From: Aquibium carbonis
Lineage (GTDB): Bacteria; Pseudomonadota; Alphaproteobacteria; Rhizobiales; Rhizobiaceae
Assembly (NCBI RefSeq): GCF_003970795.1
Contig: NZ_RWKW01000013.1
Span: 1 to 34,035, forward strand
Direction of reading: 5' to 3'
DNA length: 34,035 bases
The position numbers were made by a program, and so were the translations under genes. Below the pieces are notes generated by a model, which worked only from the letters and a program-made list of their open reading frames with translations, had not been told where the DNA came from and did not search any database. Every line of letters begins with the position of its first letter. The first letter of the stretch is position 1. Shown here piece by piece: positions 9,968 to 31,558 of this stretch.

Positions 9968-9973
9968 GGGTTT

Positions 9974-12394: not shown

Positions 12395-12475
12395 CTGGTT
12401 CCTCCCTCCGGATGCGACATTCCTCTCCACCACGTCGTCGGTCATAACGCAAACCAGCCGGTCCCTCTGCCGCCA

Positions 12476-12493
12476 GTATCACAAGTGTGAAAC
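12476..12493. promoter_or_regulatory. 18-bp palindromic element, copy 1 (OYE / acyl-CoA ligase)
   Basis: GTATCACAAGTGTGAAAC: arms GTATCACA and TGTGAAAC are inverted repeats with one mismatch around AG. It sits 81 bases before the OYE start and 99 bases before the ligase start. Three similar elements occur at 14243, 21720 and 28925; likely operator of the cluster's IclR regulator. Confidence 0.65.
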
Positions 12494-12592
12494 GTTGCTG
12501 CGCATCCGCGTGTCGAATTGACTTGGCTGGTCGTGCCGACGATCTTGCCGCCGCGTCGGTGGAGGCCGGCTCGACACCAGGGAGGAATGCCC

Positions 12593-14224
12593 ATGCTGGG
12601 CTTGATGCAGGACAGGCAACTGTTGATCTCGTCATTGATCGAGCATGCCGCCCGCTATCATCCGGACGTCGAGATCGTCAGCCGCACCTGCGAGGGACCG
12701 ATCGTTCGGACGACCTGGGCCGAGGTCCGTTCGCGGGCGGCAAGGCTCTCCAAGGCATTGCTTCGGATGGGCATCAAGCCGGGTGACAGGGTGGCGACGC
12801 TGGCCTGGAACACCCACCGGCACCTCGAACTCTATTTCGCCGTGTCCGGCATCGGCGCGGTGCTGCACACGGTCAACCCACGGCTGTTCCCAGAGCAGAT
12901 CGACTACATCCTGAATCACGCCGAGAGCCGTGTGCTGTTCTTCGACGTGACCTTCGGCGCGCTCGCGAAGGACCTGCGCGCCAAGCTCGGCAAGGTCGAG
13001 CGCTTCGTTGCGATGACCGATGCCGCGCATCTGACCGACGACCTGATCGGCTGCGAGGCCTATGAGGATCTGGTGGCGACCGAGGACGACGTCTTCGAGT
13101 GGCCGCAGTTCGACGAAAGGACGGCCTCGTCGCTCTGCTACACGTCCGGGACGACCGGCAATCCCAAGGGCGTGCTCTATTCCCACCGCTCCACCGTGCT
13201 GCACTCCTTCACCGCCTGCGCGGCTGACGGGCTGCGCCTGTCGAGCGCCGACAGCGTTCTGCTCGCGGTGCCGCTGTTCCACGTCAATGCCTGGGGTATT
13301 CCCTATGCCGCCGCCATGTGCGGCGCCAAGCTCGTCCTGCCAGGCCCGCAACTCGACGGGCGCAGCCTGTTCGACATCGCTGTGGCCGAGGCCTGCAATT
13401 TCTCGCTCGGCGTACCCACCGTCTGGCTCGGATTCTTCAAGCATGTCGACGACACGCCGGGCATCGATCTTTCGCAGCTGCAGCTCGAACGCGTGGTGAT
13501 CGGCGGTTCCGCCGCGCCGCGTGCCATCATCGAGCGCTTCCAGCGTGACTTCGGCGTCTTCGTCATCCACGCCTGGGGCATGAGCGAGACGAGCCCGCTC
13601 GCTACCATCGGCAACCTCCTGCCGAAGCACCGTACGGCATCTCCCGACGACAAGATCGCTGTCCAGACGAAGCAGGGCCGCGCGATCTATGGCGTGGAAC
13701 TGCGCATCCGCGGCGAGGACGGCGATGCGCTCGCGCATGACGGCGCGGTCGCCGGCGATCTGCTCGTGCGCGGTCCCTGGGTCGCGTCGGGCTATTTCCG
13801 GGGCGAGGGGGGAGACGTCCTCGACGCGGAAGGGTGGTTTGCGACGGGCGACGTCGCCAAGATCGACGCGGATGGTTACGTTCAGCTGACCGACCGCTCG
13901 AAGGACGTGATCAAGTCGGGCGGGGAGTGGATCTCGTCGATCGACCTGGAAAACGCCGCCATGGCCCATCCCGGGGTCGCGGAAGCCGCCGTCATCGGCG
14001 TCCATCATCCGAAGTGGCAGGAACGACCCCTAATGATCGTGGTGCCCAAGGCCGGTCCGGCGCCGACCCGGGAGGAACTCCTTGACTTCCTGGCCGGTCG
14101 TGTCGCGAAATGGTGGCTTCCCGACGATATCGCCTTCGTCGACACCCTGCCGCACACGGCGACGGGCAAGCTGCAAAAAACGAAGCTGCGCGAGCAGTTT
14201 CGCGATCATCGGCTGCCGAGCTAG
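12593..14224 (+). CDS. AMP-forming acyl-CoA synthetase (AlkK-like)
   Basis: This 543-residue adenylate-forming ligase converts a carboxylic acid to its CoA thioester via an acyl-AMP. It shows the P-loop [11 protein letters not shown] (about 183-193), [21 protein letters not shown] (about 414-425), the hinge region [15 protein letters not shown], and C-terminal TGKLQKTKL with the catalytic Lys. The sequence is of the medium-chain/AlkK group rather than acetyl-CoA synthetase. ATG 12593 follows GGGAGGAATGCCC; an ATG at 12587 lies too close to the Shine-Dalgarno sequence, and the ATG at 12518 adds an arginine-rich, unlikely N-terminus. It probably activates the acid produced by earlier oxidation steps for the acyl-CoA dehydrogenases immediately downstream. 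Confidence 0.92.
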
Positions 14225-14242
14225 GGCGCAGGTGATCTCACG

Positions 14243-14260
14243 ACTTCACATTCATGAAAC
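14243..14260. promoter_or_regulatory. 18-bp palindromic element, copy 2 (acyl-CoA dehydrogenase operon)
   Basis: ACTTCACATTCATGAAAC, 89 bases upstream of the start at 14350. It shares TTCACA, the two-base gap and TGAAAC with the copies at 12476, 21720 and 28925. This is the most degenerate right arm of the four. Confidence 0.55.
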
Positions 14261-14349
14261 GACGCTGCAGCATATTGTTTCATTTGTACGCCGGACAAGC
14301 TTCGCATAGCGTGATTGTCAGACGGTGAAGGCTGCATCGGGGAGGAAAG

Positions 14350-15468
14350 ATGCCGCAATCCATATTCGACGATTCCGAAGGCATGCTCGCCATGCTGCGC
14401 GACAGCGTCGCCACGCTTGCGTCGCGCCAGCCGGGCGCAGCGTCGGTTCGGCAGAAGCGCGCGGCCGGCGCGGACATGGACAAGGTCCTGTGGACCGCGA
14501 TGGCGCAGGCCGGATGGACCGGTATTCTCATTCCCGAGGACCTGGGCGGCGCAGGCCTTTCGCTGACCGAGCAGGCCGTGGTCAGCGAAGCGCTCGGCCG
14601 AGCGCTGATCAGCGAACCGGTCGCCACCGGGGCCGTCTTCGCCTCGATCCTTCTGGCCAGGGCGGACGCATCGGTCGAGCGCGGCCGTCTCGTCGCGGGT
14701 CTCGTCGATGGTAGCCTGATCTTGGCGCCGGCCTGGAAGGATGGCATCGGCCGCAGCGTCTCGGCGCGTGCCGCCGATGGCGGATACATGCTGTCGGGGG
14801 AGAAGCGTCACGTCGACCTTGCAGTCTCGGCGACGGACTTCCTCGTGGTCGCCGCGCTGGACGGAGGTTTCGGCCTGTTCTCCGTGCCTGCCAAGGGCGT
14901 GGGTCTAAGCGTGGAGACCGCCCACGGCGTGGATGGCGCCGCAATCGGCACCGTCCGGTTCGACCAGTGCTGGCTGCCGCAGGCTGCTCTCCTCGCCAGG
15001 GCGTCGAGCGAGGCGGAACTGCTCGATGCGGCGATCACCAGCGCCCGTGTCGCGCTCGCGGCGGAGCTCGCCGGCATCGCCTCGCGGGCCGTCGAGATCA
15101 CGATCGACTACACCAAAGCGCGCGTGCAGTTCGGCAAGCCGATCGCGAGTTTCCAGGTCGTCCAGCATCGCCTCGTCGACATGTGGTCGGACGCCGAGTT
15201 CGCCTGCGCGGCGGTCGTCAACGCAGTCGAAACCCTGGCGGACGGAGACGCGCAGGCCGGTCGCATGGCCGTGCTGGCCGCCAAGGCGCGCGCGGGCGAC
15301 GCGGCCGTTTCGATCTGCCGCCGCGCGGTGCATCTGCACGGCGCCATGGGCTTCACCGATGAATGCGACATCGGGCTCTATCTCAAGCGCGCGATCAGCC
15401 TGAACGCGACGCTCGGCCAGCCCGAGGATCTGCGGCTCGAATTCGTCAATCTGGAACGTGCGGCCTGA
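14350..15468 (+). CDS. Acyl-CoA dehydrogenase, small-subunit type (PimD-like)
   Basis: This 372-residue flavoprotein has an N-terminal helical domain (WTGILIPEDLGGAGLSLTEQ), a middle beta-domain (GGYMLSGEKRHVDLAVSATD), and a C-terminal helical domain with YTKARVQFGKPIASFQVVQH. It also has HLHGAMGFTDECDIGLYLKR, a block typical of the small subunit of pimeloyl-CoA dehydrogenase-like pairs. It would introduce the alpha-beta double bond of an acyl-CoA, probably as a heteromer with the product of 16260-17423. A GGGGAGGAAAG ribosome site precedes ATG 14350. First gene of an operon continuing into the hydratase after 15 bases. Confidence 0.88.
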   Translation: MPQSIFDDSEGMLAMLRDSVATLASRQPGAASVRQKRAAGADMDKVLWTAMAQAGWTGILIPEDLGGAGLSLTEQAVVSEALGRALISEPVATGAVFASILLARADASVERGRLVAGLVDGSLILAPAWKDGIGRSVSARAADGGYMLSGEKRHVDLAVSATDFLVVAALDGGFGLFSVPAKGVGLSVETAHGVDGAAIGTVRFDQCWLPQAALLARASSEAELLDAAITSARVALAAELAGIASRAVEITIDYTKARVQFGKPIASFQVVQHRLVDMWSDAEFACAAVVNAVETLADGDAQAGRMAVLAAKARAGDAAVSICRRAVHLHGAMGFTDECDIGLYLKRAISLNATLGQPEDLRLEFVNLERAA

Positions 15469-15483
15469 GGCCGGGAGGACAAA

Positions 15484-16260
15484 GTGCGCAACAATCTCAT
15501 CAAGGTGACCATCGAGGACCGCATCGCGGTCGTGAAGATGGACAACGCACCGGTCAATGCCTATTCGCGCGACTTCTCCGACGAGATGATCGAGGTGTTC
15601 GACGAACTGAACGACACCCCGGAGGTTCGCTGCATCGTCATTACTGGCCGCGAGAAAATCTTTTCGGCCGGCGCCGACATCAAGAACCGCCAGGCCATCG
15701 GCGACATCAAGGGCGAGACCTATCGCCATCTGCGTCGCACCCGCGAGGTCTCGAACTGCATCATGGAGTGCGGCAAGGCCGTCATCGCCGCCGTCAACGG
15801 GCCGGCGCTCGGGGCCGGCATGGGGCCGATCATCGCCGCCGACATCATCCTGGCCTCCGACAATGCCGTTTTCGGTCTGCCGGAAATCGACATCGGCCTC
15901 ATGGGCGGTGCGCGCCACACGATGTCCCTGTTTCCCAAGTCGCTCGCCCGCCGGATGATCCTCACCGGATACCGCGTGCCGGCCGAGGAGGCCTATCGCC
16001 GCGGCATCATCGAGGCCTGCGTGCCACTGGAAAACCTGATGGACGAGGCCATGAAGATGGCACGCATCATCGCGTCGAAGAGCCCCAAGGCGCTCAGCCT
16101 CGCCAAGCGCGCGATCAACACGGTCGAGAACATGCCGCTGCGCGACGGCTACCGCTTCGAGCAGAACCTGACGGTCGAGATGACGCGCCACGAGGATTCC
16201 AAGGAAGCCATGCGCGCCTTCATCGAGAAGCGCCCGGCGGTGTTCAAGGACGAGATCTGA
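15484..16260 (+). CDS. Enoyl-CoA hydratase/isomerase family protein
   Basis: This 258-residue crotonase-fold protein starts with GTG 15484 (GGGAGGAC upstream). It shows FSAGADIKN, the first oxyanion-hole strand, then NGPALGAGMGPIIAADI and FGLPEIDIGLMGG. The second glutamate of classical hydratases (PE in FGLPE) is present. At the first catalytic Glu position, within GAGMG where rat hydratase has GGGCE, no Glu is visible. It may therefore be an isomerase, hydrolase or lyase of the superfamily, possibly ring-opening, rather than a standard hydratase. It sits between the two acyl-CoA dehydrogenases and its stop overlaps the next start by one base, so all three should be co-translated for the same acyl-CoA. 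Confidence 0.88.
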   Translation: MRNNLIKVTIEDRIAVVKMDNAPVNAYSRDFSDEMIEVFDELNDTPEVRCIVITGREKIFSAGADIKNRQAIGDIKGETYRHLRRTREVSNCIMECGKAVIAAVNGPALGAGMGPIIAADIILASDNAVFGLPEIDIGLMGGARHTMSLFPKSLARRMILTGYRVPAEEAYRRGIIEACVPLENLMDEAMKMARIIASKSPKALSLAKRAINTVENMPLRDGYRFEQNLTVEMTRHEDSKEAMRAFIEKRPAVFKDEI

Positions 16261-17423
16261 TGACGTCCGCGACCGATTGGAACGCCTTGGCCGACGAGGC
16301 CTTCCGCGAGGCCTTCCGCGATCTCGTCGAGCGCAGGCTGCCGTCCGAGCTGCGCTTCATACGCAAGCAGCGGCCGCTCTTCGACGAGGTTTCGGTGTGG
16401 TACCATGCGCTGGCCGAGGAAGGCTGGCTCGCGCCGGTCTGGCCGGTCGAGCATGGGGGCATGGGGCTGACGCCGGCCAAGCACATGATCTATGTGGAGG
16501 AGTGGGGGCGGCTCGGCTGCCCGCGCATCCCGGACCATGGCCTCGGCCTCATCGGGCCGCTGCTCCTGGAGCACGGCACCGACGAGCAGAAGGCCTACTA
16601 CCTTCCGCGCATCCTCACCGGCGAGCATGTCTGGTGCCAGGGCTATTCCGAGCCGAATTCCGGCTCCGACCTGGCCAGCCTGCGCACGGCGGCCGTGCGC
16701 GACGGAGACGCGTTCGTCGTCAACGGCCAGAAAATCTGGACCACGCTGGCGCACTGCGCGAACTGGATCTTCGCGCTGGTTCGCACCAGCCGCGACGAGA
16801 AGGTGCGCCAGAAGGGCATCACCGTTCTGCTGATCGACATGACGACGCCGGGCGTTCGGGTTCGTCCCATCGCCAATCTCCGGGGCGAAACCGATTTCTG
16901 CGAGGTGTTCTTCGACGACGTGCGCGTACCGGTCGCCAACGTGGTCGGGCAGATCGACCAGGGCTGGGATGTGGCCAAGTCGGTGCTCGGCCACGAGCGC
17001 ATCTTCCTCGGCGCGACGACCCGCCCCGAGATCGCCATCGAACGGCTGGAAAAGCTCGCCCGGGCACGGGGCGCCTTCGAAGACCCGGCTTTCCGCTCGC
17101 GCTACGCCAGGCACAGGCTCGACCTCTATGATCTCGGCTCTGCCTTCGAGCGATTCGCGAAAGTGTTGCGCGACGGCGGCGAACTGGGCGCGGACGTCTC
17201 GATGCTGAAGATCTTCACCACCGAACTCTACCAGCGCATCACCGAGGAGACCCTGACATTGGCAGGGGAGGATGCGCGCTACTTCGATGACATCGAAGCC
17301 GGTAATGATCAGGTCGATGCGATGAACCTGTTTCTGGATTCGCGCGCACCGGCCATCTTCGGCGGATCGAACGAGATACAGAAGAACATCCTGGCGAAGG
17401 CGGTCCTGCGGCTGCCGAGCTGA
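16260..17423 (+). CDS. Acyl-CoA dehydrogenase, large-subunit type (PimC-like)
   Basis: This 387-residue protein contains the acyl-CoA dehydrogenase domains in order: N-terminal helices (EEGWLAPVWPVEHGGMGLTP), the middle domain with WCQGYSEPNSGSDLASL and GQKIWTTLAHCANWIF, and a C-terminal domain ending IFGGSNEIQKNILAKAV. The middle-domain blocks resemble the large subunit of pimeloyl-CoA dehydrogenase. The start ATG 16260 shares its A with the TGA of the hydratase gene, so the long open frame before it is not coding. With the small-subunit gene at 14350 it probably forms an alpha/beta enzyme. Substrate unknown; such pairs often act on branched, dicarboxylic or alicyclic acyl-CoAs. Confidence 0.9.
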   Translation: MTSATDWNALADEAFREAFRDLVERRLPSELRFIRKQRPLFDEVSVWYHALAEEGWLAPVWPVEHGGMGLTPAKHMIYVEEWGRLGCPRIPDHGLGLIGPLLLEHGTDEQKAYYLPRILTGEHVWCQGYSEPNSGSDLASLRTAAVRDGDAFVVNGQKIWTTLAHCANWIFALVRTSRDEKVRQKGITVLLIDMTTPGVRVRPIANLRGETDFCEVFFDDVRVPVANVVGQIDQGWDVAKSVLGHERIFLGATTRPEIAIERLEKLARARGAFEDPAFRSRYARHRLDLYDLGSAFERFAKVLRDGGELGADVSMLKIFTTELYQRITEETLTLAGEDARYFDDIEAGNDQVDAMNLFLDSRAPAIFGGSNEIQKNILAKAVLRLPS

Positions 17424-17465
17424 ATTGACGGCCGCGGCGAGCTCCGCGGATCGAGGGAGGAGAAC

Positions 17466-18261
17466 ATGGCCAGCATGGAAGCCGCCGTTCCGGCGGGCGC
17501 GGTCGCGTCGGCGATCGACCAGGATTATGCGCTGGTCGGCGAAGGCCTGACCAAGGTCTTCGGCGGCTTTGCCGCCGTGAAGGACGTGAATCTCGCCGTT
17601 CGGCGAGGCTCGATCCACGCGCTGATCGGGCCGAACGGCGCCGGCAAGACGACGTGCTTCAACCTGCTCACCAAGACGCTGTCGCCGACGAAGGGCAGGA
17701 TTCTGCTCAATGGCGTGGACATTTCCAGGCTGCGGACCGCGGAGGTGGCGCGTCGCGGCCTTGTCCGCTCGTTCCAGATCTCGGCCATCTTCCCAAACCT
17801 GACCGTTCTCGAAAACGTCCGCGTCGCGCTGCAGGCGTCCTACGGCACCGGTTATCACTTCTGGCGGTCACTGCGGGCGGTCGCGCCGCTCAACCGGCGC
17901 GCCGAGGAACTGCTGGAACAGGTCGGCATCGTCGAGAGCCGCGGCACCACGGCGGCCGAACTGTCCTACGGCAAGAAGCGCGCTTTGGAGATCGCCACCA
18001 CGCTGGCGCTCGAACCGGAGGTGATGCTGCTGGACGAACCAACGGCCGGCATGGGCCATGAGGACGTCGAGCCGATCACCGAACTGATCCGGAAGGTCGC
18101 CGTGGGACGCACGGTCCTGCTCGTCGAGCACAATCTGTCGGTGGTTTCGAACCTGTGCGACCGCATCACCGTGCTCCAGCACGGCGAAGTGTTGGCAGAG
18201 GGGACCTACGAACAGGTGTCCAACGACGAGCGGGTCGTCGAGGCCTACATGGGAGGCGTGG

Positions 18262-18269
<8 letters not shown>
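17466..18269 (+). CDS. Branched-chain-type ABC transporter ATP-binding protein (LivG type)
   Basis: This 267-residue ATPase has Walker A GPNGAGKT (about residues 57-64), the LivG-type loop GLVRSFQISAIFPNLTVLENV, the family signature AELSYGKKRALEIA, Walker B VMLLDEPTAGM and the switch His in LVEHNL. It is the first of four consecutive importer genes and overlaps livF by eight bases. A strong GGGAGGAGAAC site precedes ATG 17466. The start lies 42 bases after the acyl-CoA dehydrogenase stop, so transport and beta-oxidation genes are probably one transcript. The importer likely carries an aromatic or alicyclic acid, or a related hydrophobic substrate, rather than leucine (inference from context). 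Confidence 0.92.
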
Positions 18270-19008
<739 letters not shown>

Positions 19009-19012
19009 GCCG

Positions 19013-19894
19013 ATGTTCGACGGCATCTCGACGCAACTGCTGATGGGGCAGATCCTGATCGGGCTGATCAACGGCTCGTTCTACGCCATGCTCTCGATGG
19101 GGCTCGTCATCATCTTCGGCATGATGCACATCATCAATTTCACCCATGGCGCACAGTACATGCTGGGCGCTTTCGTGGCCTGGCTCCTGCTCAACCATCT
19201 CGGCATCGGCTACTGGCCGGCCCTGGTGATCGCGCCGGTGGTCGTGGCGATCTCGGGAATGTTCCTGGAAAGGGTGCTGCTTAGACCCTTGGCGGGGCTC
19301 GACCATCTCTACAGCCTGCTGGCCACATACGCGGTCGCGCTGATCGTCGAGGGGCTCGTTCGCTATCAGTACGGCTCGACCGGCCTGCCGTATCAGAACC
19401 CCATCCCCGGCGGGGTGAATCTGGGCTTCATGTTCATGCCCTACTACCGCCTCTGGGTCGTGGCCTTTTCAGTGTTCACCTGTCTCGGCACCTGGATCCT
19501 CATCGAACACACCAAGCTCGGCTCCTACCTGCGCGCGGCCAACGAGAAGCCGCAGCTCGTCCAGACATTCGGCATCAACGTGCCGAAGATGATGACGCTG
19601 ACCTACGGGTTCGGCGTCGGCCTCGCCGGCCTTTGCGGCGTTCTCGCGGCACCGATCTACCAGGTGTCTCCGTCGATGGGATCGAGCCTGATGATCGTCG
19701 TCTTCGCAGTCGTGGTGATCGGCGGCATGGGGTCTATCATCGGCGCGGTTGCCACCGGCTACATGCTCGGCGTCGTGGAAGGGCTGACCAAGGTCTTCTA
19801 TCCGGAAGCCGCCAGCGTGGTGATCTTCCTGTTCATGACGGTCGCGCTCTATCTGCGCCCGGCCGGCATCTTCAGCGGCAAGGAGCAGAACTGA
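19013..19894 (+). CDS. Branched-chain-type ABC transporter permease (LivH type)
   Basis: This 293-residue inner-membrane protein has about eight hydrophobic segments. Blocks typical of LivH are GLINGSFYAMLSMGLVIIFGMMHIINFTHGAQYMLGAF at the N-terminus and FAVVVIGGMGSIIGAVATGY in the C-terminal half. It pairs with the LivM-type protein to form the channel. Its stop overlaps the next start (TGATG) by one base. Confidence 0.92.
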   Translation: MFDGISTQLLMGQILIGLINGSFYAMLSMGLVIIFGMMHIINFTHGAQYMLGAFVAWLLLNHLGIGYWPALVIAPVVVAISGMFLERVLLRPLAGLDHLYSLLATYAVALIVEGLVRYQYGSTGLPYQNPIPGGVNLGFMFMPYYRLWVVAFSVFTCLGTWILIEHTKLGSYLRAANEKPQLVQTFGINVPKMMTLTYGFGVGLAGLCGVLAAPIYQVSPSMGSSLMIVVFAVVVIGGMGSIIGAVATGYMLGVVEGLTKVFYPEAASVVIFLFMTVALYLRPAGIFSGKEQN

Positions 19895-20865: not shown

Positions 20866-20869
20866 TCCA

Positions 20870-20892
20870 GCCGGCCGCAGGATGCGGCCGGC
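20870..20892. terminator. Bidirectional terminator between the importer and the IclR gene
   Basis: GCCGGCCGCA (20870-20879) and TGCGGCCGGC (20883-20892) form a perfect 10-bp stem with a GGA loop. It sits in the 49-base space between two convergent genes and could serve both. U-tracts are weak on both sides. Confidence 0.7.
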
Positions 20893-20914
20893 AGCCGCTC
20901 TTGGCCGGACGGGT

Positions 20915-21694
20915 TCAGAACTCGATGTCGATCGGCTGGTCGAAGGGGTCGCTCGGCTGTACCGACTTGGCCGCCCGTTGCAGGGACGCCAGGTAGCGGT
21001 CGCGGTTGAGACGAATGCGTTCGGCCGCGCCACCGAGCCCCAGCACGACCGGCTGGTTCTGGATGCTGATCGGCAAAAGCACGCAGATCGTCCCGCCGCC
21101 CAGAAAAGGAACGTTCTCGGTCCAGCAGTAGCCGGTCTGTCTGATCTCGCGCACGCGCTCCATCATGTCGCCGATCTTGACACGCTCGGAGGCTTTCGGG
21201 GTCGCGATGTTGGCGCGGCGCACGATGTTGTCGATCTTGTCGTCGGGCAGGGTGGACAGGAGCATCCAGCCGACGGCCGACTGGGTCAGAGGCCGCAGCG
21301 TGCCCTCGTCGACGTGGAACCGCAAGGCGTGCACCGACTGGATGATCTGGACGTACTGGAGATAGACGTCGTTGCGCGTCCCGATGGAAACGGTCTCGCC
21401 GGTTGCCGCATGCACGTCGCGCAACGCGTCGAGCACCCGGCTGGTGCCGAACAGGGCACGGGGAATCCAGTCGCCCAGGGACGTGACCTTGGGCGTCGGA
21501 AAATAGAGCCGGTCGCTTCGATCGAAGTTCAGGTAGCCGAGCGTGACCAGCGTCTTGAGCAGAACCGTCGTGCTCGACTGCGGATAGCCGAGCGCGACGG
21601 CGATTTCCGACATCGCGCGCGGCTGCCTAATGCGCTTGAAATATTCGAGAATCTCGATGGCGCGTGTCGCCGACTTGACCTGCGAATTCTGCAT
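20915..21694 (-). CDS. IclR-family transcriptional regulator
   Basis: This 259-residue protein has an N-terminal winged helix (VKSATRAIEILEYFKRIRQP, then MSEIAVALGYPQSSTTVLLKTLVTLGYL) and a C-terminal IclR effector domain (ETVSIGTRNDVYLQYVQ, then the conserved GYCWTENVPFLGG region). ATG 21694 was chosen because GGAGGATCGGCCG precedes it; ATG 21850 would add an atypical 52-residue extension. It is the only regulator inside the catabolic cluster and sits opposite the first monooxygenase. One 18-bp element lies 25 bases upstream, and three related ones precede other cluster operons, so it probably controls itself and the pathway. Whether it activates or represses cannot be seen; positions about 90-140 bases upstream of the rightward genes suit activation. 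Confidence 0.9.
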   Translation of the reverse strand: MQNSQVKSATRAIEILEYFKRIRQPRAMSEIAVALGYPQSSTTVLLKTLVTLGYLNFDRSDRLYFPTPKVTSLGDWIPRALFGTSRVLDALRDVHAATGETVSIGTRNDVYLQYVQIIQSVHALRFHVDEGTLRPLTQSAVGWMLLSTLPDDKIDNIVRRANIATPKASERVKIGDMMERVREIRQTGYCWTENVPFLGGGTICVLLPISIQNQPVVLGLGGAAERIRLNRDRYLASLQRAAKSVQPSDPFDQPIDIEF

Positions 21695-21719
21695 CGGCCG
21701 ATCCTCCGCTATCAGTGCA

Positions 21720-21737
21720 GTATCAGAGATGTGAAAC
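21720..21737. promoter_or_regulatory. 18-bp palindromic element, copy 3 (iclR / LLM monooxygenase)
   Basis: GTATCAGAGATGTGAAAC, identical to copy 1 at 14 of 18 positions. It lies 25 bases upstream of the IclR start, where it would block that promoter, and 142 bases before the monooxygenase start. This is a likely autoregulatory operator. Confidence 0.65.
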
Positions 21738-21879
21738 TGCTCACCACGTACGAATTGCTTCTGGTTCGGGTTCACTGGGCATGACAAGGTAGCCGTCGTC
21801 AAGGCCGAACACGCCCTGACGTCGGGAGGAGACGAGACGGGCGCCTGCAAGGGACGCCCGCGACGGGAGGAGATGAGCC

Positions 21880-23193
21880 ATGAAGCTCGGTGTCTTCTAT
21901 GAGCACCAGTTGCCGCAGCCGTGGGGCGAGGATGGCGAACTGAGGCTCTTCAACGAGGCGCTCGAACAGGTCGAGCTCGCCGATCGCCTCGGCTTTGACC
22001 ACATGTGGGAAGTCGAGCACCATTTTCTCGAGGAGTATTCGCATTCTTCCGCGCCCGAGGTGTTTCTCGGTGCCGTCTCCCAGCGCACGAAGAACATCCG
22101 TCTCGGGCATGGCATCTGCCTGTCTCCGCCCGCCTACAATCACCCCGCGCGCGTGGCCGAGCGGCTCGCCACCCTCGATCTCGTATCGGGTGGCCGCGTC
22201 GAATGGGGAACGGGTGAATCCGGCTCGCTCATCGAGATGCACGGCTTCGGGATCGAGCCGGAACAGAAGACTGCCATGTGGCGCGAAGGCGTCGAGCAGA
22301 CGGCCAACATGATGACCATGCGGCCGTACCCGGGCTTCGACGGTCAGTTCTTTTCGATGCCGGTGCGCAACGTCGTGCCGAAGCCGGTGCAGAAGCCGCA
22401 TCCGCCGATCTGGATGGCGTGCTCGCGCCGCGAAAGCATCCTGCGCGCGGCCCGCAACGGGGTCGGGGCCCTGGTCTTCGGCTTCGTCGAGGCGTCCCAG
22501 GCCAAGCTCTGGCGCGACGAATACTATTCCATCATCAAGTCGGACGAATGCGTGCCGATCGGCCATGTTGTGAACGCGAATTTCGCGACACTGAACGGCA
22601 TGATGGTGCACCAGAACCATGACGAGGCCATCAGCCGCGGGTTGGACGGATTTCGCTTCTTCGGCTTTTCCATCGCCCACTACGCCGTCTACGGCGAGCA
22701 CCGGCCAGGCGTCACCAATCTCTGGAACCGGTTCCAGGCGATCAAGGACGAGATGCGCGACACGCCGGGCGCGGGTTCGATCGGAACGCCGGCCAGCGTG
22801 CGCGAACACCTCGAGAGCTATGCCGACGTGGGTGTCGACCAGATGATCTTCATCCAGCAGTCCGGCATGAATCGTCACGACCACATCTGCGAGGCGATGG
22901 AACTCTTCGCCAGCGAGGTCATGCCCGCGCTGAAGGATGGCGAGGACGAGCGTTTGCGTCGCAAGGACGAGGAACTCGCCCCTTTCATAGAACGGGCGCT
23001 CGCCCGCAAGCCGCGGATGGCGGCATTGCGCGTCGACGAGGTGCCGAACGTCGAGTCCATCGGCATCGTGCTCGAGCGGCGGTCGGGCAAGGATTACGCG
23101 AGCGCCGGCGGCACCTATGCCGATCCGACGCGCGGCGGCGCCATCCCCATGGCGTCGCGCGAAACTTTCGCCAGGGCGGCGAAGGTGGGTTGA
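21880..23193 (+). CDS. LLM-class flavin-dependent monooxygenase with C-terminal extension
   Basis: This 437-residue protein has the bacterial luciferase-like TIM barrel: MKLGVFYEHQLPQPWG, LADRLGFDHMWEVEHHFLEEYSHS near residue 34, IRLGHGICLSPPAYNHPARVAERLATLDLVSGGRVEWGTG, and PPIWMACSR. It would use reduced FMN and O2 supplied with a flavin reductase (candidate at 29049). Reactions in the family include Baeyer-Villiger oxidation of cyclic ketones, desulfonation and N-dealkylation. About 80 residues beyond the usual family length are present at the C-terminus, rich in charged residues (DGEDERLRRKDEELAPFIERA). GGGAGGAGATGAGCC precedes ATG 21880. It is followed immediately by the SDR gene and is probably the first gene of the 21880-28939 operon. 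Confidence 0.88.
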   Translation: MKLGVFYEHQLPQPWGEDGELRLFNEALEQVELADRLGFDHMWEVEHHFLEEYSHSSAPEVFLGAVSQRTKNIRLGHGICLSPPAYNHPARVAERLATLDLVSGGRVEWGTGESGSLIEMHGFGIEPEQKTAMWREGVEQTANMMTMRPYPGFDGQFFSMPVRNVVPKPVQKPHPPIWMACSRRESILRAARNGVGALVFGFVEASQAKLWRDEYYSIIKSDECVPIGHVVNANFATLNGMMVHQNHDEAISRGLDGFRFFGFSIAHYAVYGEHRPGVTNLWNRFQAIKDEMRDTPGAGSIGTPASVREHLESYADVGVDQMIFIQQSGMNRHDHICEAMELFASEVMPALKDGEDERLRRKDEELAPFIERALARKPRMAALRVDEVPNVESIGIVLERRSGKDYASAGGTYADPTRGGAIPMASRETFARAAKVG

Positions 23194-23229
23194 ATGAAGA
23201 CACACGTGCATGAGCGGGAAGGAGCGGCG

Positions 23230-23988
23230 ATGACGGGTAGGCTCGAGGGGCGTGTGGCGCTGGTCACGGGCGGCGGCCGGGGCATTGGCCGCGCGATTTC
23301 GGAGGCGTTCGCCCGTGAAGGGGCGTCTGTCGGCATCGTCGACCTGAAGCCCGAGATTGCGGGCGCCGCGGCCGACGAGATCAATGCTTCCGGCGGCAAG
23401 GCAATCGGGCTCGTCGCCAACGTGGCCCGGCGCGACGAGGTCTTCGAGGCGGCGGAACAGGTCAGGGCCGCGTTCGGGCCGACGACCATTCTCGTCAACA
23501 ACGCGATGTTCAATCGCTACGGTTCGCTCCTGGAGCAGGACGAGAAGACGATCGGCCTGATGATCGACGTCGGCTTCAAGGGCGTGATCTGGGGCTACCA
23601 GGCCGTCGTTCCCCAGATGGAGGAGGCCGGCGGTGGATCGATCATCAACATCGCGTCTCCCGCAGCCCTGATCGCGTTCAGGCACGGCATCATGTACAGC
23701 GCCGTCAAGGCCGCCGTGCAGGCGTCGACGCGCTCGGCGGCCGCCGAGTTCGGGCCCTTGAACATCCGCGTCAATGCCATCGCCCCTGGCTCAACCCGCA
23801 CCGATGGCGCCAATCTCGTCGTCGACGAGGCAGGCTGGGAGCGGCGGCGCCAGAAGGTGCCGCTCGGACGCCTCGGCGAGCCGGAAGACATCGCCAATGC
23901 CGCTGTGTTCCTCGCTGGCGCGGAGTCCAGCTGGGTCAGCGGCGACATGATGCTCGTCGACGGCGCCATGACATTCGCGTTTTCGTAA
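23230..23988 (+). CDS. Short-chain dehydrogenase/reductase
   Basis: This 252-residue classical SDR shows cofactor motif TGGGRGIG (about 13-20), NNAMFN in place of NNAG, INIASPA with the catalytic Ser, YSAVKAA with Tyr and Lys, and a typical C-terminus (WVSGDMMLVDGA). Asp at the end of strand two (GIVDLKPE) favours NAD(H). I chose ATG 23230 (GGAAGGAGCGGCG upstream) over ATG 23194, which touches the preceding stop but gives 12 residues outside the fold. It probably interconverts an alcohol and ketone, or a hydroxyacyl-CoA, in the pathway. Confidence 0.9.
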   Translation: MTGRLEGRVALVTGGGRGIGRAISEAFAREGASVGIVDLKPEIAGAAADEINASGGKAIGLVANVARRDEVFEAAEQVRAAFGPTTILVNNAMFNRYGSLLEQDEKTIGLMIDVGFKGVIWGYQAVVPQMEEAGGGSIINIASPAALIAFRHGIMYSAVKAAVQASTRSAAAEFGPLNIRVNAIAPGSTRTDGANLVVDEAGWERRRQKVPLGRLGEPEDIANAAVFLAGAESSWVSGDMMLVDGAMTFAFS

Positions 23989-24018
23989 TTCATCGCGGCA
24001 TTCGCCGCCGATGCAACC

Positions 24019-24057
24019 ATCTTCGGACGGAGGTCTCCCTTCGGGAAGTTCGAAGAT
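24019..24057 (+). repeat. Inverted repeat in the leader of the binding-protein gene
   Basis: ATCTTCG (24019-24025) and CGAAGAT (24051-24057) are perfect inverted repeats separated by 25 bases that contain a smaller TCCC-ttc-GGGA hairpin. They lie between the SDR stop and the ribosome site of the solute-binding protein. The structure may stabilise or partly terminate the transcript; this is speculative. Confidence 0.35.
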
Positions 24058-24076
24058 CTCAAGTGGAGGAAAAGAC

Positions 24077-25303
24077 ATGAAGACACAGACGATGAAATAC
24101 GCCTTGGCGGGTCTCCTGGCCTCGACCTTTCTGGTGCCGGCAGCCGTCGCCGACGGCATCTCGGGCGACGTGGTGAAGATTGGCGTCATGAACGACCAGT
24201 CCGGTCCCTATGCCGACAATGGCGGCCCCGGCACCGTCGAGGCGGCGCGCATGGCCATCGAGGATTTCGGCGGCGAGGTGAACGGCAAGAAGATCGAACT
24301 CGTGATTGCCGACGACCAGAACAAGCCCGACATCGGTGCGGCGATCGCGCAGAAATGGGTCGATGAAGAGGGTGTCGACGCCATCGTCGGTGGTTCGGCC
24401 TCCTCGATCGCCATCGCGATCCAGGCAATGATGGCCGAGAAGAAGAAGCCCTACATGCTGGCCGGCACGGCCTCCTCGGGCCTGACCAACGATGCCTGCT
24501 CGCCGATGGGCACCCAATGGGTTCTCGATACCTATTCGCTCGCCAAGGGCGTCATCCAGTCGATGATCGCTGCCGGCAACGAGTCCTTCTACTTCATCAC
24601 GGTCGACTACACCTTCGGCAAGCAGTGGCAGGCCGACGCCACCAAGTTCATCGAGGATGCCGGCGGCAAGGTGCTGGGCTCGGTGCTGCATCCGCTCAAC
24701 AGCAACGACTTCTCGTCCTACGTGCTGCAGGCGCAGGCGAGCGGCGCGGACGTCATCGTGCTTGCCAATTCTGGCTCCGACTTCGCCAACGCGGTCAAGC
24801 AGGCGCAGGAATTCGGCATCCAGGCAGGCGGCCAGCAGGTCGTGGCGCTGGGACTCCAGATCAACCAGGTTCACGGCATCGGCCTGGAGGCCGTCCAGGG
24901 CATGTCGATCGTCACGCCCGGCTACTGGGACCTGAACGACGAGACCCGCGAATTCGCCGACCGCTTCAAGAAGCGCTTCCGGGATCGCATTCCCAACGAG
25001 ACGATGTCGGGCACCTACAGCGCCATCACGCACTACCTGAAGGCCGTCCAGGAAGCCGGCACCGACGAGGGTGAGGCGGTCGTCGCCAAGATGCACGAGA
25101 TGCCGATCAACGACTTCCAGATGAAGGACGTCATGATCCGCGCCGACGGGCAGGTGATGCGGCCGATGTACGCCGTCACCATCAAGAGCCCCGACGAGGT
25201 GAAGCAGCCCTACGACTACTACACGGTTACCGCGACGATCCCGGCCGAGGACGTCTGGCGGCCGGCGTCGGAAAGCAGCTGTCCGCTCCTGAAGACCCAA
25301 TAA
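24077..25303 (+). CDS. ABC transporter substrate-binding protein (branched-chain/aromatic type)
   Basis: This 408-residue protein has a signal peptide (MKTQTMKYALAGLLAS to AAVADG) and a type I periplasmic binding fold. Family blocks are VVKIGVMNDQSGPYADNGGPG, VNGKKIELVIADDQNKPDIGAA, VDAIVGGSASSIAIAIQ and FYFITVDYTFGKQW. It belongs with the LivGFHM-type subunits at 17466-20865, although about 3.2 kb and three genes separate them. Proteins of this group often bind aromatic or other organic acids rather than amino acids. GTGGAGGAAAAGAC precedes ATG 24077. A strong hairpin directly after the gene may raise its level relative to downstream enzymes, a usual need for binding proteins. Confidence 0.9.
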   Translation: MKTQTMKYALAGLLASTFLVPAAVADGISGDVVKIGVMNDQSGPYADNGGPGTVEAARMAIEDFGGEVNGKKIELVIADDQNKPDIGAAIAQKWVDEEGVDAIVGGSASSIAIAIQAMMAEKKKPYMLAGTASSGLTNDACSPMGTQWVLDTYSLAKGVIQSMIAAGNESFYFITVDYTFGKQWQADATKFIEDAGGKVLGSVLHPLNSNDFSSYVLQAQASGADVIVLANSGSDFANAVKQAQEFGIQAGGQQVVALGLQINQVHGIGLEAVQGMSIVTPGYWDLNDETREFADRFKKRFRDRIPNETMSGTYSAITHYLKAVQEAGTDEGEAVVAKMHEMPINDFQMKDVMIRADGQVMRPMYAVTIKSPDEVKQPYDYYTVTATIPAEDVWRPASESSCPLLKTQ

Positions 25304-25318
25304 GCCTCCCAAGGCTCC

Positions 25319-25344
25319 GGCGAAGGGGCATCTGCCCCTTCGCC
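25319..25344 (+). terminator. Strong hairpin after the binding-protein gene
   Basis: GGCGAAGGGGCA (25319-25330) and TGCCCCTTCGCC (25333-25344) form a perfect 12-bp inverted repeat with almost no loop, 15 bases after the stop. No U-run follows (acccctg), so it may act as a 3' mRNA stabiliser with partial read-through into the lactonase gene 25 bases on. Confidence 0.65.
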
Positions 25345-25369
25345 ACCCCTGATGATCGAAGGCAAGACA

Positions 25370-26272
25370 ATGATCCCGAAGTTTCAGCTCGTCTCCGGGG
25401 ACGCGGACCTTTTGGGCGAGAGCCCGGTATGGGACCCACGCGACCGCATGCTCTACTGGGTCGATGGCGTGTCCCGCCTGATCCGCTCCCACGACCCGGC
25501 CACCGGCGGCTTCCGTTCATGGAAGACGCCGTCAATGGTCGGCTCCGTTGCGCTGGGCGAAGGCAGGACGCTGGTGGCGGGTCTGGCCGACGGCATCTAC
25601 CAACTCGATCTCGAAACCGGTGCGTTCAGTCCCCTGTTCATTCCGGAGCCTGACCCCAAGGTCCGCTTCAACGACGGCAAGAACGACCGCTTCGGTCGCT
25701 TCCTCTGTGGAACCATGGGCGTGCATGCCGATCCGCTGGGCAAACTCTGGCGCGTCGATCGCGACGGCCGTTCAGAGGTCTTCGCCACGGGCATCCGGAT
25801 CTTCAATTCCCTGTGCTTCAGCCCCGATGGCAGGACCATGTACTTCGCCGACAGCCTCGACCGAACGATCAGGGCGTTTTCCTATGGCCCGGCAGACACG
25901 CCGGTCGGCAATCCGCGCCTGTTGGCTGACACCAATCCATGGGATTCGGGCCCCGACGGCGCAACGGTCGATGCCGACGGCTGCATCTGGGTCTGTCTCG
26001 TTCAGGTGGGCAAGATTGCCCGCTTCACCCCGGGTGGAAAGCTCGACCGGCTGATCGACGCGCCGACCGACATGCCTTCCTGCGTGGCGTTTGGTGGCGA
26101 GGATCTCTCGACGCTCTATGTCACGTCGATCAAGGATTCCGGCTCCGGTCGCGCCATCTCTCGCCATCCGCAGGGAGGTTGCCTCTTCGCCATCGAAGGG
26201 CTTGGCGTTCGCGGCCTGCCCGAGGCGCGTTTCGGCGCACCCGTGGCCCTGCCGATGGCGGGTGCCGCGTGA
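25370..26272 (+). CDS. SMP-30/gluconolactonase-family lactonase
   Basis: This 300-residue six-bladed beta-propeller enzyme shows metal-site residues at the expected places: Glu17 in LLGESPVWD, Asn101 in RFNDGKND, Asn146 in IFNSLCFSPDG and Asp196 in GPDGATVDADG. These enzymes hydrolyse lactones with a divalent metal. In this cluster it could open the lactone made by a luciferase-like monooxygenase (inference). I prefer ATG 25370 (GAAGG seven bases upstream). ATG 25352 also fits the frame but lies just after the hairpin with no ribosome site. Its stop overlaps the next start (TGATG). Confidence 0.88.
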   Translation: MIPKFQLVSGDADLLGESPVWDPRDRMLYWVDGVSRLIRSHDPATGGFRSWKTPSMVGSVALGEGRTLVAGLADGIYQLDLETGAFSPLFIPEPDPKVRFNDGKNDRFGRFLCGTMGVHADPLGKLWRVDRDGRSEVFATGIRIFNSLCFSPDGRTMYFADSLDRTIRAFSYGPADTPVGNPRLLADTNPWDSGPDGATVDADGCIWVCLVQVGKIARFTPGGKLDRLIDAPTDMPSCVAFGGEDLSTLYVTSIKDSGSGRAISRHPQGGCLFAIEGLGVRGLPEARFGAPVALPMAGAA

Positions 26273-28377
26273 TGCTGACACGCATGAACTCCCTCTCCGC
26301 GCTGCTTTCGCCATCGTCGATCGCGCTGGTCGGAGCCTCCGACGATGCCCAGCGCATCGGCGGACGCCCACTGCGCTATCTTCGCGAAGGCGGCTATCGC
26401 GGCGCGGTCTACCCGGTCAATCCGAAGCGCGAGACCGTCCAGGGCATGCGCGCCTACGGCTCGATCGCCGATCTGCCCGAAACGCCGGATGTCGCTATCC
26501 TTGCCGTGCCGGCGGCTGGGACACTCGAGGCCGTGCGTGCCTGCGCCGAGCGCAAGGTCAGGGCGGCGATCGTGTTTTCGGCCGGCTTCGCCGAAACCGA
26601 CGAGGCGGGCAGGGCGATCCAGGTGGAGATGACAGGCATCGCCCGCGAAAGCGGCATGCGACTGCTTGGACCGAACTGCCTCGGGGTCTTCAACTCGACG
26701 ATCGGCTATTACGGCACGTTTTCGGCGATCCTCGACGGCGCCTTCATCGAGCCCGGACCGGTCGGCGTCGTGTCGCAGAGCGGTGCCTACGGCTCGCACA
26801 TCGCCCATCTGGCGCGCCAGCGTGGTCTCGGCATCGGCCACTGGATCACCACCGGCAACGAGTGCGACGTCGATGTCGCGGAGGCTCTGCGCTGGATGGT
26901 CGAGCAGCCGGACGTCAACGTGGTGATGGCCTACGCGGAAGGGGTCCGCAACCGCGACACCTTCGTGGAGGCGCTCGACGTGGCGCGGCAGCGCGAGAAG
27001 GCGATCGTCTTCATGAAGGTCGGCCGGTCGGAGGTCGGCGCCCATGCCGTGAGTTCTCACACCGCCGCGCTCGCCGGCTCGGATGCCGTGTTCGATGCGG
27101 TGTTCCGGCAGTATGGCGTCTGGCGCGCGAAGACCACGGCCGAACAGCTCGACGTCGCCTATGCGTGCTCCCGCGGAAAATACCCCGCCGGCAACACGCT
27201 TGGCATCTTCACCCTGTCCGGGGGCTTCGGCATCCAGATGGCCGACGACGCGGAAGCTGCCGGTCTCGACGTCGCGCCGATGCCGCAGGAAGCGCAGGCC
27301 GACCTCAAGGCGATGCTGCCCTATGCGTCGCCGCGCAATCCCGTCGATGCGACGGCGCAGGCCCTGACCGATCTGCCGCTGATGACGAGCTACATCGCCG
27401 CGATGCTGGAGAAGGGGGGCTATGATGTCTTCACCGGCATCTTCGGCAGTGGTCCGGCAAGCCCGACCTTCGCCGACCGCCTGCGCGAAGTGCTGGAAAC
27501 GGCCTCTGCCGCGTCCCGCGAGACCATCATGACGCTGACCATGACGGCTCCGCCCGAAATCGTCCGGTCGTATGAGGAAAAAGGCTTCCTGATCCACGAG
27601 GACGGCACCGCGCTGATGAACGCGCTGGGCGCGCTGGTACATTTCCGCCGCAGCTTCGACCGTGCGAAGCAGGCCCCCGAGCATCTGCCGGTCGCCGAGG
27701 CGATCGATCTCGGCACGGCCGCGATTGGCGAGCACGAAGCCAAGCGCATCCTGTCGGCCGCCGGTATTCCCTTTCCAAAGGATGCGCTGGTCAGGCCGGG
27801 CGAGGATGCCGGCACGGCGGCAGCGGAAATCGGGTTCCCGGTCGTGGTCAAGATCGCTTCGCCCGACATAGCCCACAAGACCGAGATCGGCGGCGTGATC
27901 GTCGGTATCGCGGCCGAGGATGAGACACGCAAGGCCGCCGCCGAAATTCTCGAACGGGCCGCCCTGCATCGTCCGGACGCGCGCATCGACGGCGTGCTGG
28001 TCTCGCCGATGATCTCCGGTGGGGTCGAGGTGATCGCCGGCGTGTCGAGCGACCCTGCGTTCGGCCCGGTGGTCATGTTCGGACTGGGCGGCGTCTTCGT
28101 CGAGGTCCTGAAGGATGTGACCTTCCGCGCTGCGCCCTTCGACGTGGCCGAGGCCCACCGCATGATCCGCGAGATCCGGGGATACTCGATGCTGGAAGGC
28201 GTGCGCGGCGCGCCCCCCGCCGACGTCCAGGCGCTGGCTGCGATGTTGTCGGCGCTGTCGCGCTTCGCCGCCGCCAACGCGGCCGCGATCGAGAGCATCG
28301 ATCTCAATCCCGTCCGGGTGCTCGAAGCGGGCAAGGGTGTCGTTGCGCTCGACGCGCTGATCGTGCCTCGGGCGTGA
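26272..28377 (+). CDS. ADP-forming acyl-CoA synthetase (acetate-CoA ligase family, fused subunits)
   Basis: This 701-residue protein has an N-terminal CoA-binding Rossmann domain ([21 protein letters not shown]), a succinyl-CoA-ligase-like middle domain with the phosphorylated His in [11 protein letters not shown] (His263), and a C-terminal ATP-grasp domain from about 480 ([40 protein letters not shown]). Subunits that are separate in archaeal enzymes are fused here. It makes an acyl-CoA from acid, ATP and CoA with ADP release, or runs in reverse to yield ATP. It is a second CoA ligase in the cluster, mechanistically unrelated to that at 12593, which suggests two acids are activated. ATG 26272 overlaps the lactonase stop; ATG 26284 is an alternative. 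Confidence 0.9.
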
Positions 28378-28399
28378 CGGACTGACTGGAGTGAGGGGA

Positions 28400-28939
28400 A
28401 TGGACGAGAACAGACTGACGGAACTCCTCGACCGCGAGGCGATCCGGGACTGCATCTATCGCTACTGCCGCGGCATCGACCGGGCGGACGAGGCGGCGTT
28501 GCGGTCATCCTACTGGCAGGACGCACAAGACTGCCATGGCGCCTACAGGGGCTCGGCCGAAGGGTTCATCGGGCTCGCGCTCGAGGTCTTCAAGACCGGG
28601 CCGCGCAACGTGCATCAGGTTTCGAACATCCTGGTCGAATTCACCGCTCCTGGCGTGGCGGTGGTCGAGAGCTATTTCAACGCCCTTCAAAGAGGACCGG
28701 ACCGGGAGGGTGTGGTGCGCCAGTTCCTGCTTGCCGGTCGCTATTGCGACCGGTTCGAGAAGCGGGGCGGGGAATGGCGCGTCGCGGATCGGGTCGTCGC
28801 CTACGACTGGGTCGAGGAGCAGACGCCGCCCTCCGCAGGGGAGGAAGAGCGCTTCGGCGCCCGTCGGCCCGTCGGCGCCGCCTATCCGGAAGACCCGATC
28901 TACGCCGTGTTGCGCGCCGCAGGGACTTCACAGGTCTGA
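28400..28939 (+). CDS. SnoaL/NTF2-like protein
   Basis: This 179-residue protein begins with a helix typical of the SnoaL-4 group ([22 protein letters not shown], then [18 protein letters not shown]), followed by NTF2-fold strands ([46 protein letters not shown]). The conserved His-Gln in the strand and the Tyr/Asp pair near residues 20-40 line the cone-shaped pocket in related isomerases and dehydratases. The fold is recurrent in catabolic clusters as hydratase, isomerase or ring-hydroxylating dioxygenase small subunit. No dioxygenase large subunit is present here, so an isomerase/hydratase role is more likely. ATG 28400 follows GAGTGAGGGGA. Its stop lies inside the 18-bp element at 28925. 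Confidence 0.8.
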
Positions 28940-28942
28940 AAC
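28925..28942. promoter_or_regulatory. 18-bp palindromic element, copy 4 (flavin reductase operon)
   Basis: ACTTCACAGGTCTGAAAC overlaps the stop codon of the SnoaL-like gene and lies 106 bases upstream of ATG 29049. It matches the other three copies at the shared core TCA, the two-base gap and TGAAAC. It suggests an independent promoter for the 29049-32694 genes. Confidence 0.55.
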
Positions 28943-29048
28943 TATTCATCCAGTGCGTGAAGGTGTTGCATGCGAACGGCTCTTCCTCACAATGGCGACG
29001 GAGTGGTTGCCGAAGGCGCGGCCACGATGGTGACGGAGTTAGGATCCC

Positions 29049-29636: not shown

Positions 29637-29663
29637 CGGGCGTCAGAAGGGGAGGAGATCGAA

Positions 29664-31265: not shown

Positions 31266-31558
31266 TCGTCGACCATTCGCCCAGGGACGGCTTGCGCCTG
31301 CTCGAGCCGGAGGACTTCAAGGGCTTCAAGCTGCGCCTGTCCGGCCATGCCGATGTCCGCCCGGCCATCGGCGGCGTTCGCTTCGTCGATGACGGCAACG
31401 TGCTGATCGGCGTCGACCTGGTGCCGGCGCTGCCCGGCGCGCCCGATACCGATGACTGGCGGCGGGGCTACCAGGCGATGGTCGCCTATGCGGCCGGGAA
31501 GGGGTGGGTCGACGACGCCACCAACGCCATTCGCGCCCATGTCGAGCGCTTGCCCTGA
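31262..31558 (+). CDS. Conserved small protein of unknown function
   Basis: This 98-residue protein starts at ATG 31262, overlapping the stop of the SDR fusion (ATGA), so it is translationally coupled. The sequence has no signal peptide or membrane segment. It has a beta-rich middle (IGGVRFVDDGNVLIGVDLVPAL) and a helical C-terminus (WRRGYQAMVAYAAGKGWVDD, then ATNAIRAHVERLP). I do not recognise a family. Position between the SDR fusion and a luciferase-like monooxygenase, with codon use like its neighbours, suggests a pathway accessory protein. The longer open frame starting at 30164 is a shadow of the SDR gene. Confidence 0.7.
   Translation: MIVDHSPRDGLRLLEPEDFKGFKLRLSGHADVRPAIGGVRFVDDGNVLIGVDLVPALPGAPDTDDWRRGYQAMVAYAAGKGWVDDATNAIRAHVERLP

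What the first reader, a model, noticed from the sequence alone, without database searches (positions are those of the whole stretch)
12476..28942. Four copies of an 18-bp element define a probable IclR regulon
GTATCACAAGTGTGAAAC (12476), ACTTCACATTCATGAAAC (14243), GTATCAGAGATGTGAAAC (21720) and ACTTCACAGGTCTGAAAC (28925) share ten invariant positions, including TCA and TGAAAC, and a palindromic TTCACA-nn-TGTGAA core. Each lies in or at the edge of an intergenic region, upstream of OYE/ligase, the acyl-CoA dehydrogenases, iclR/LLM, and the flavin reductase. Distances to the rightward starts are 99, 89, 142 and 106 bases, typical of an activator. The only regulator in the cluster is the IclR protein.
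Basis: partly seen in the sequence, partly recalled or inferred. Interest (0 to 1): 0.75.

Follow-up and report, generated by a model that had tools for sequence, protein, structure and literature searches.

The report
Operator set of one IclR regulon
Four copies of a short DNA sign mark the promoters of one breakdown-pathway gene cluster and are, very probably, landing sites of the cluster's own IclR-family switch protein; this is a well-supported but ordinary kind of bacterial gene control.

Summary
A matrix trained only on sites upstream of iclR in other bacteria picks exactly these four as the top 4 of 34 kb (19.4-21.0 bits; next 8.8). A matrix from the four sites alone puts a site beside iclR among the locus's best six in 26 of 28 relatives; both misses are 71-73% identical paralogues. 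New here: the promoter -35 sits at a nearly fixed distance. TTG begins 24 bases after the operator in 20 of 38 non-redundant promoters and 25 bases in 6 more (2000 controls: best column at most 8). A weaker second operator is centred 21 bp downstream (z 9.9). This fits an activator bound as two dimers on one DNA face, near -68 and -47. At iclR itself the operator ends 25 nt before the ATG, which fits autorepression. Motif and tandem spacing match the published IclR group 1 (PMC8222616). New member of a known kind. Binding, sign of control, inducer and substrate are inferred.

The parts
12476..12493 (+). Operator O1 between OYE gene (leftward) and CoA-ligase gene (rightward), GTATCACAAGTGTGAAAC
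12497..12514 (+). Weak second operator O2 of the ligase promoter, centre 21 bp from O1
   Evidence: place follows from the 21-bp shift found over 40 non-redundant promoters; inferred for this single site
12518..12546 (+). Predicted ligase promoter: -35 TTGACT 12518-12523, 17-nt spacer, -10 GATCTT 12541-12546
12447..12452 (-). Predicted -35 TTGCGT of the leftward OYE promoter, beginning 24 bases from the operator edge
14243..14260 (+). Operator O1 upstream of acyl-CoA dehydrogenase operon, ACTTCACATTCATGAAAC
14264..14281 (+). Weak O2 of the acyl-CoA dehydrogenase promoter
   Evidence: inferred
14284..14312 (+). Predicted promoter: -35 TTGTAC 14284-14289, -10 TAGCGT 14307-14312
21720..21737 (+). 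Operator O1 between iclR (leftward, ATG at 21694) and LLM monooxygenase gene (rightward), GTATCAGAGATGTGAAAC
21741..21758 (+). Weak O2 of the LLM promoter
   Evidence: inferred
21762..21790 (+). Predicted promoter: -35 TGGTTC 21762-21767, -10 CAAGGT 21785-21790 (TGG instead of TTG, also in the LLM1 relatives aligned)
28925..28942 (+). Operator O1 upstream of flavin reductase operon, ACTTCACAGGTCTGAAAC, overlapping the end of the snoaL-like gene
28946..28963 (+). Weak O2 of the flavin reductase promoter
   Evidence: inferred
28966..28994 (+). Predicted promoter: -35 TTGCAT 28966-28971, -10 ACAATG 28989-28994
20915..21694 (-). IclR-family regulator, 259 aa, proposed binder of all four operators
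   Evidence: Pfam HTH_IclR 42.8 bits, IclR_C 51.2 bits on the longer ORF; translation; relatives
11192..12394 (-). Old yellow enzyme (NADH:flavin oxidoreductase), leftward target; start chosen by its ribosome-binding-site-like sequence
   Evidence: run on the longer ORF to 12445
12593..14224 (+). AMP-forming CoA ligase (AMP-binding family)
14350..20865 (+). Presumed operon: acyl-CoA dehydrogenase, enoyl-CoA hydratase, acyl-CoA dehydrogenase, two ABC ATPases, two branched-chain-type permeases
   Evidence: operon by gene order only
21880..28939 (+). Presumed operon: luciferase-like monooxygenase, SDR, periplasmic binding protein, SMP-30 lactonase-like, ADP-forming CoA ligase, SnoaL-like
   Evidence: operon by gene order only
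29049..32694 (+). Presumed operon: flavin reductase, double SDR, 98-aa protein without Pfam match, second luciferase-like monooxygenase
   Evidence: operon by gene order only

Best explanation
The four sites are the main operators (O1) of one local IclR regulon of about 20 genes in six presumed transcription units: OYE, CoA ligase, the acyl-CoA dehydrogenase/transporter operon, iclR, the LLM1 operon and the flavin reductase operon. An IclR dimer binds O1 (consensus GTTTCACA-nn-TGTGAAAC) and a second dimer binds a weak copy O2 centred 21 bp, two helical turns, downstream, on the same face. In the predicted promoters O1 is centred near -68, O2 near -47, and the -35 begins 24-25 bases after O1; from there IclR, with an unknown inducer, recruits RNA polymerase. 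At 12476 the same O1 probably serves the leftward OYE promoter too. At iclR the operator ends 25 nt before the start codon, so the protein should shut off its own gene. Shown here by computation: the sites, their conservation, their link to iclR, the -35 spacing and the O2 copy. Inferred: binding by IclR, activation, autorepression, inducer. The pathway probably oxidises and opens a cyclic or terpene-like compound (OYE, LLM, lactonase), then runs CoA activation and beta-oxidation; this last point is a guess from gene families.
For: Relatives-only matrix finds exactly the four sites. Four-site matrix: the best site within 120 nt upstream of iclR is among the top 6 positions of the locus in 26 of 28 relatives (top 5 in 25 of 28); random stretches of like length hold a top-5 site in 39 of 1400. 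In whole genomes, 10 of 11 IclR proteins of 62-95% identity have a site of at least 18.6 bits 33-46 nt before the first matched codon; 4 of these 10 (L045, L047, L049, L051) lie on the same contigs as named loci, 6 are new. 0 of 12 IclR proteins of 27-42% identity have one above 11 bits within 300 nt upstream. Of 68 sites in window plus 28 relatives, none lies deeper than 60 nt inside a gene mapped by the window's 21 proteins; 7 have no mapped neighbour. TTG at offset 24 in 20 of 38 non-redundant promoters, 6 more at 25; 2000 rolled controls, best column mean 4.09, max 8. O2 at shift 21: z 9.9 over 40 promoters. Composite model ranks the four sites first. Motif and tandem spacing agree with PMC8222616 (abstract, passages and named sections seen).
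Against: No binding or expression data. 12 of 38 non-redundant promoters have TTG at neither offset 24 nor 25; LLM1 promoters carry TGG, and the two Hoeflea ligase promoters show neither. The -10 columns are weakly conserved. The promoters compared belong to a few homologous families, so rows are not fully independent even after thinning. Site 28925 is the least conserved: a site upstream of the flavin reductase gene is listed in 4 of the 14 loci that hold the gene (window, L018, L019, L020; L018 and L019 only 14.0 bits); the nearest named relative, L016, shows none. Two paralogues (L027, L031) with nearly the same recognition helix have no site upstream, so helix likeness alone does not predict it. 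Sites of 20-25 bits occur 0.7-2.1 kb from distant IclR genes in L055 and L060. Pattern hits with up to 2 mismatches occur in 19 of 50 genomes without a close IclR. By operator score alone a few other places in the genome come within 0.4-2.2 bits of the weakest of the four.
Confidence: 0.77

Rival explanations
1. The four sites are IclR operators, but the protein is a repressor of the catabolic promoters as well, released by inducer; the fixed -35 distance reflects looping or a shared ancestral promoter module.
For: The family includes repressors, activators and dual regulators (PMC8222616, section seen). The operator beside iclR is placed for repression.
Against: O1 lies upstream of the -35 in the predicted catabolic promoters, where a repressor would not block polymerase directly; the spacing recurs in promoters of different genes.
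Confidence: 0.15
2. Another regulator encoded elsewhere in the genome binds the sites, and iclR is just one of its targets.
For: No tool here shows binding; pattern hits exist in genomes without this IclR.
Against: The site stays beside iclR when the neighbouring genes change, as in Bradyrhizobium L032, L033, L036, L037 and L039; none within 300 nt upstream of 12 of 12 distant IclR genes; the motif fits the IclR group 1 consensus.
Confidence: 0.06
3. Chance similarity or a dispersed repeat.
For: The inner 14-bp core alone has 40 places in the genome.
Confidence: 0.01

Closest known systems
IclR-family group 1 operators (Suvorova and Gelfand 2021, PMC8222616)
   Same: Consensus palindrome fits GKTYCRYW3-4RYGRAMC outside the variable centre; tandem copies 21 bp apart lie inside their 18-22 range; site beside the regulator's own gene.
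PobR/PcaU (Acinetobacter) IclR regulators
   Same: Extra half-site repeat beside the palindrome (PMC8222616 passages); PcaU named a transcriptional activator (passage of PMC12285266).
   Different: Three-box sites with GTNCG-type boxes; ours is a strong and a weak full palindrome of another sequence. Promoter positions of PobR/PcaU sites were not checked.
Solved chain 3d3o_A, putative IclR-family regulator
   Same: Best solved-structure match, E 7.8e-67, residues 79-255, so effector part only.
   Different: No function or operator known to me; its source organism (Acinetobacter) is recalled, not from a call.

Membership tests
IclR-family transcription factor | N-terminal HTH_IclR and C-terminal IclR_C domains | tested here: met
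   PF09339 42.8 bits (cut-off 22) and PF01614 51.2 bits (cut-off 24)
IclR group 1 operator | Fits GKTYCRYW3-4RYGRAMC | tested here: met
   Consensus compared by eye; single sites deviate at outer positions, and the centre is not always A/T
IclR tandem operator | Second site with centres 18-22 nt apart | tested here: met
   Shift 21, z 9.9 as a mean over 40 promoters; the second copy is weak and was not tested site by site
IclR autoregulation | Operator beside its own gene | tested here: met
   26 of 28 relatives plus the window
IclR family | Direct DNA binding and effector response | not testable with these tools
   needs protein
IclR-type activator | Operator upstream of -35, loss of expression in a mutant | tested here: inconclusive
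   Position fits; mutant not available

The most novel reading that the evidence does not exclude
A single IclR tetramer on two palindromes two turns apart acts as a rigid ruler: the -35 must start 24-25 bases from O1, and in the OYE-ligase gap one O1 drives two divergent promoters, while the cluster encodes an undescribed ring-opening pathway shared by several genera of Alphaproteobacteria.
Probability: 0.4. Interest if true: 0.5.

Novelty: new member of a known kind. Interest (0 to 1): 0.35.

Why it matters
It gives a precise, testable operator and promoter map for a regulator for which I found no description, and for about 20 genes; the IclR gene with its site recurs in contigs named Aquibium, Mesorhizobium, Bradyrhizobium, Hoeflea, Gemmobacter and others. 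A constant operator to -35 spacing, if general, could help to tell IclR activators from repressors by sequence alone. It also shows which genes belong to one pathway, a help in finding its substrate.

Tried and rejected
Presence of the 18-bp pattern (up to 2 mismatches) as a marker of IclR-bearing genomes: 26 of 61 genomes have a hit; of 11 genomes with an IclR of at least 62% identity 7 have one, of the other 50 genomes 19 have one (counted by eye from the listings). Too loose to use. Of 39 forward hits, 10 lie within about 15 kb of such an IclR gene; the reversed control has 15 forward hits.

Scoring only the 14-bp core: not discriminating. A first run on whole-genome loci ignored that some loci carry iclR on the minus strand; one search replaces it. 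A phylum-wide search found an IclR at E up to 1e-50 in 4 of 398 genomes, own included, the other three at 38-42% identity; the genomes are drawn evenly from a larger group, so this is no full measure of spread.

Literature: nine searches ran. Five held no paper with the required terms: operator/tetramer wording, two gene-set searches needing 4 of 5 terms, a carvone-type pathway needing 5 of 6 terms and an IclR/alphaCTD search. TTTCACA plus IclR listed 12 papers, BlcR plus IclR 2, Aquibium 9; none of these was opened. One search listed 7; I opened PMC8222616 (abstract, passages, Results part 1 of 2, the IclR-Family and Regulog sections) and saw passages only of PMC12285266, whose PobR is annotated as AraC family and served only as an example of activation with autorepression.

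Left out of counts: seven sites without a mapped neighbouring gene; of 69 catabolic-side sequences, 38 (at least 60 bases long and sharing fewer than 39 of 60 bases) or 40 were used. NCBIfam names were obtained for a set of 9 sequences, at least one of them given in a wrong frame (15363-16260); the call for another 9 failed on a coordinate error and was not repeated; three proteins were run against Pfam later.

On re-checking, the distance from operator to the iclR ATG was mended from 26 to 25 nt, the promoter centres by one base, and my confidence lowered from 0.85 to 0.77 only so that it adds up with the rivals.
Full report
The observation. In the 5,341,885-base genome the strict pattern has 6 matches, of which 4 are these. 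Because that pattern was made from the sites, I built an independent test.

Independent test. Relatives of the IclR protein were fetched: 28 loci from named genomes. In 23 of 28 a palindrome with at most 4 mismatches begins 34-98 nt before the matched iclR start. A symmetrised matrix built from these 23 sites (17 unique), none from the window, ranks the four window sites 1 to 4 of the whole 34 kb, at 19.4-21.0 bits, with the fifth at 8.8; 60 first-order Markov simulations of the window gave a mean best score of 10.8, the highest 19.07, and none reached the fourth site's score. The reverse test, a matrix from the four sites alone, places the best site within 120 nt upstream of iclR at rank 1 to 6 of all positions in 26 of 28 loci; L027 and L031 fail. 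These two are paralogues of 71-73% identity from assemblies that also hold a closer relative with the site (L019, L018).

Link to IclR. In 10 of 11 IclR genes of at least 62% identity from whole genomes (own genome not counted) a site of at least 18.6 bits lies 33-46 nt before the first matched codon; the exception, L058, lies on the same contig as L031. Four of the ten lie on contigs already seen; six are new. None of 12 IclR genes of 27-42% identity has a site above 11 bits within 300 nt upstream, though L055 has one of 24.9 bits 1 kb upstream and L060 has 20.2 and 22.0 bits 0.7 and 2.1 kb after the match start. Where the neighbouring genes differ, as in five Bradyrhizobium loci (L032, L033, L036, L037, L039), the site stays with iclR. 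This points to IclR as the binder, without proving it.

Promoter geometry. Scanning window and 28 relatives (562,141 bases) gave 68 sites of at least 13 bits in 27 of the 29 sequences. None lies deeper than 60 nt inside a gene as mapped by tblastn of the window's 21 proteins; genes of other families in the relatives were not mapped, and seven sites without a mapped neighbour were left out of what follows. Catabolic-side sequences, 69 in all, were thinned to 38 that share fewer than 39 of 60 bases. TTG begins 24 bases after the operator in 20 of 38 and 25 bases in 6 more; rolling each sequence at random 2000 times gave a mean of 4.09 and a maximum of 8 for the best column. In the window: ligase TTGACT, offset 25; acyl-CoA dehydrogenase TTGTAC, 24; flavin reductase TTGCAT, 24; OYE leftward TTGCGT, 24; LLM1 has TGGTTC, 25. 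A 17-nt spacer leads to a weakly conserved -10.

Second operator. The mean operator score of the downstream DNA peaks at a centre-to-centre shift of 21 bp (z 9.9; observed -14.07, highest of 300 controls -23.01). So a weak copy, two turns away and on the same face, sits between O1 and the -35. Conservation also extends one base past the 18-bp unit (T in 36 of 40).

Genome scan. Candidates caught by three patterns, together with the rest of the loci that hold them (176,258 bases, window and overlapping copies of it included), were scored with operator plus a 30-base downstream model trained without the window: 34.7, 33.3, 32.1 and 29.4 for the four sites, then 17.9 for the OYE side of 12476, then 15.5 at contig C12. 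Operator alone separates less: elsewhere 19.3, 18.7, 18.0, 17.5 against 19.7-23.7. The scan covers only places caught by the patterns and their surroundings of up to 3 kb, not the whole genome.

Mechanism. An operator upstream of the -35 at a fixed distance, with a second one next to the -35, is what an activator that touches RNA polymerase would need. At iclR the operator ends 25 nt before the ATG, which fits autorepression. Direction of control is inferred; I give activation about 0.8 given that the regulon is right.

Least certain target. A site upstream of the flavin reductase gene is listed in 4 of 14 loci that hold this gene, two of them weak (14.0 bits), and is missing in the nearest named relative L016. 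In several relatives that gene directly follows the snoaL-like gene and may be read from the LLM1-side promoter.

Pathway. Gene families are an old yellow enzyme, two CoA ligases, two acyl-CoA dehydrogenases, an enoyl-CoA hydratase, a branched-chain-type ABC transporter with binding protein, two luciferase-like monooxygenases with a flavin reductase, SDRs, an SMP-30-type lactonase and a SnoaL-like protein. An enone reduction, oxygen insertion, lactone opening and beta-oxidation route for a cyclic or terpene-like compound would use most of them; this is an inference with low confidence. Literature searches for such a set found nothing.

Comparison. PMC8222616 (abstract, passages, Results part 1 of 2, IclR-Family and Regulog sections seen) gives the IclR group 1 consensus GKTYCRYW3-4RYGRAMC and tandem sites with centres 18-22 nt apart in 94 orthologous groups. 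The present set fits both, so it is a new member of a known kind. Its supplementary tables could not be consulted, so I cannot say whether this group was already predicted there.

Noticed in passing
L027 364-1140 and L031 521-1297: IclR paralogues, 71-73% identical, nearly the same recognition helix, in assemblies that also hold the closer relative, but without an operator in the upstream DNA held (363 and 520 nt) or elsewhere in the locus at up to 4 mismatches, one poor 4-mismatch hit in L027 aside.
   Followed up: partly
L020 20506 and 20554: Two strong operators 48 bp apart upstream of OYE in Mesorhizobium zhangyense, where OYE lies about 1.4 kb from the ligase gene instead of sharing one operator with it.
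   Followed up: no
window 31262-31558: 98-aa protein between the double SDR and the second LLM gene, found in six relatives at 53-81% identity, no Pfam match.
   Followed up: partly
window 3766-10936: Separate sugar-type set: ABC transporter, periplasmic binding protein, bifunctional aldolase/dehydrogenase and a DeoR/SorC-like regulator.
   Followed up: no
L089 and L090: Distant IclR genes (38-42%): weaker related palindromes, 10.3 bits 59 nt upstream in L090 and 17.2 bits elsewhere in L089.
   Followed up: no
L055 about 1 kb upstream of the iclR match; L060 0.7 and 2.1 kb after the match start: Operator-like sites of 24.9, 20.2 and 22.0 bits near IclR genes of only 39% and 32% identity; G023, source of L060, also holds a closer IclR relative of 62%.
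   Followed up: no
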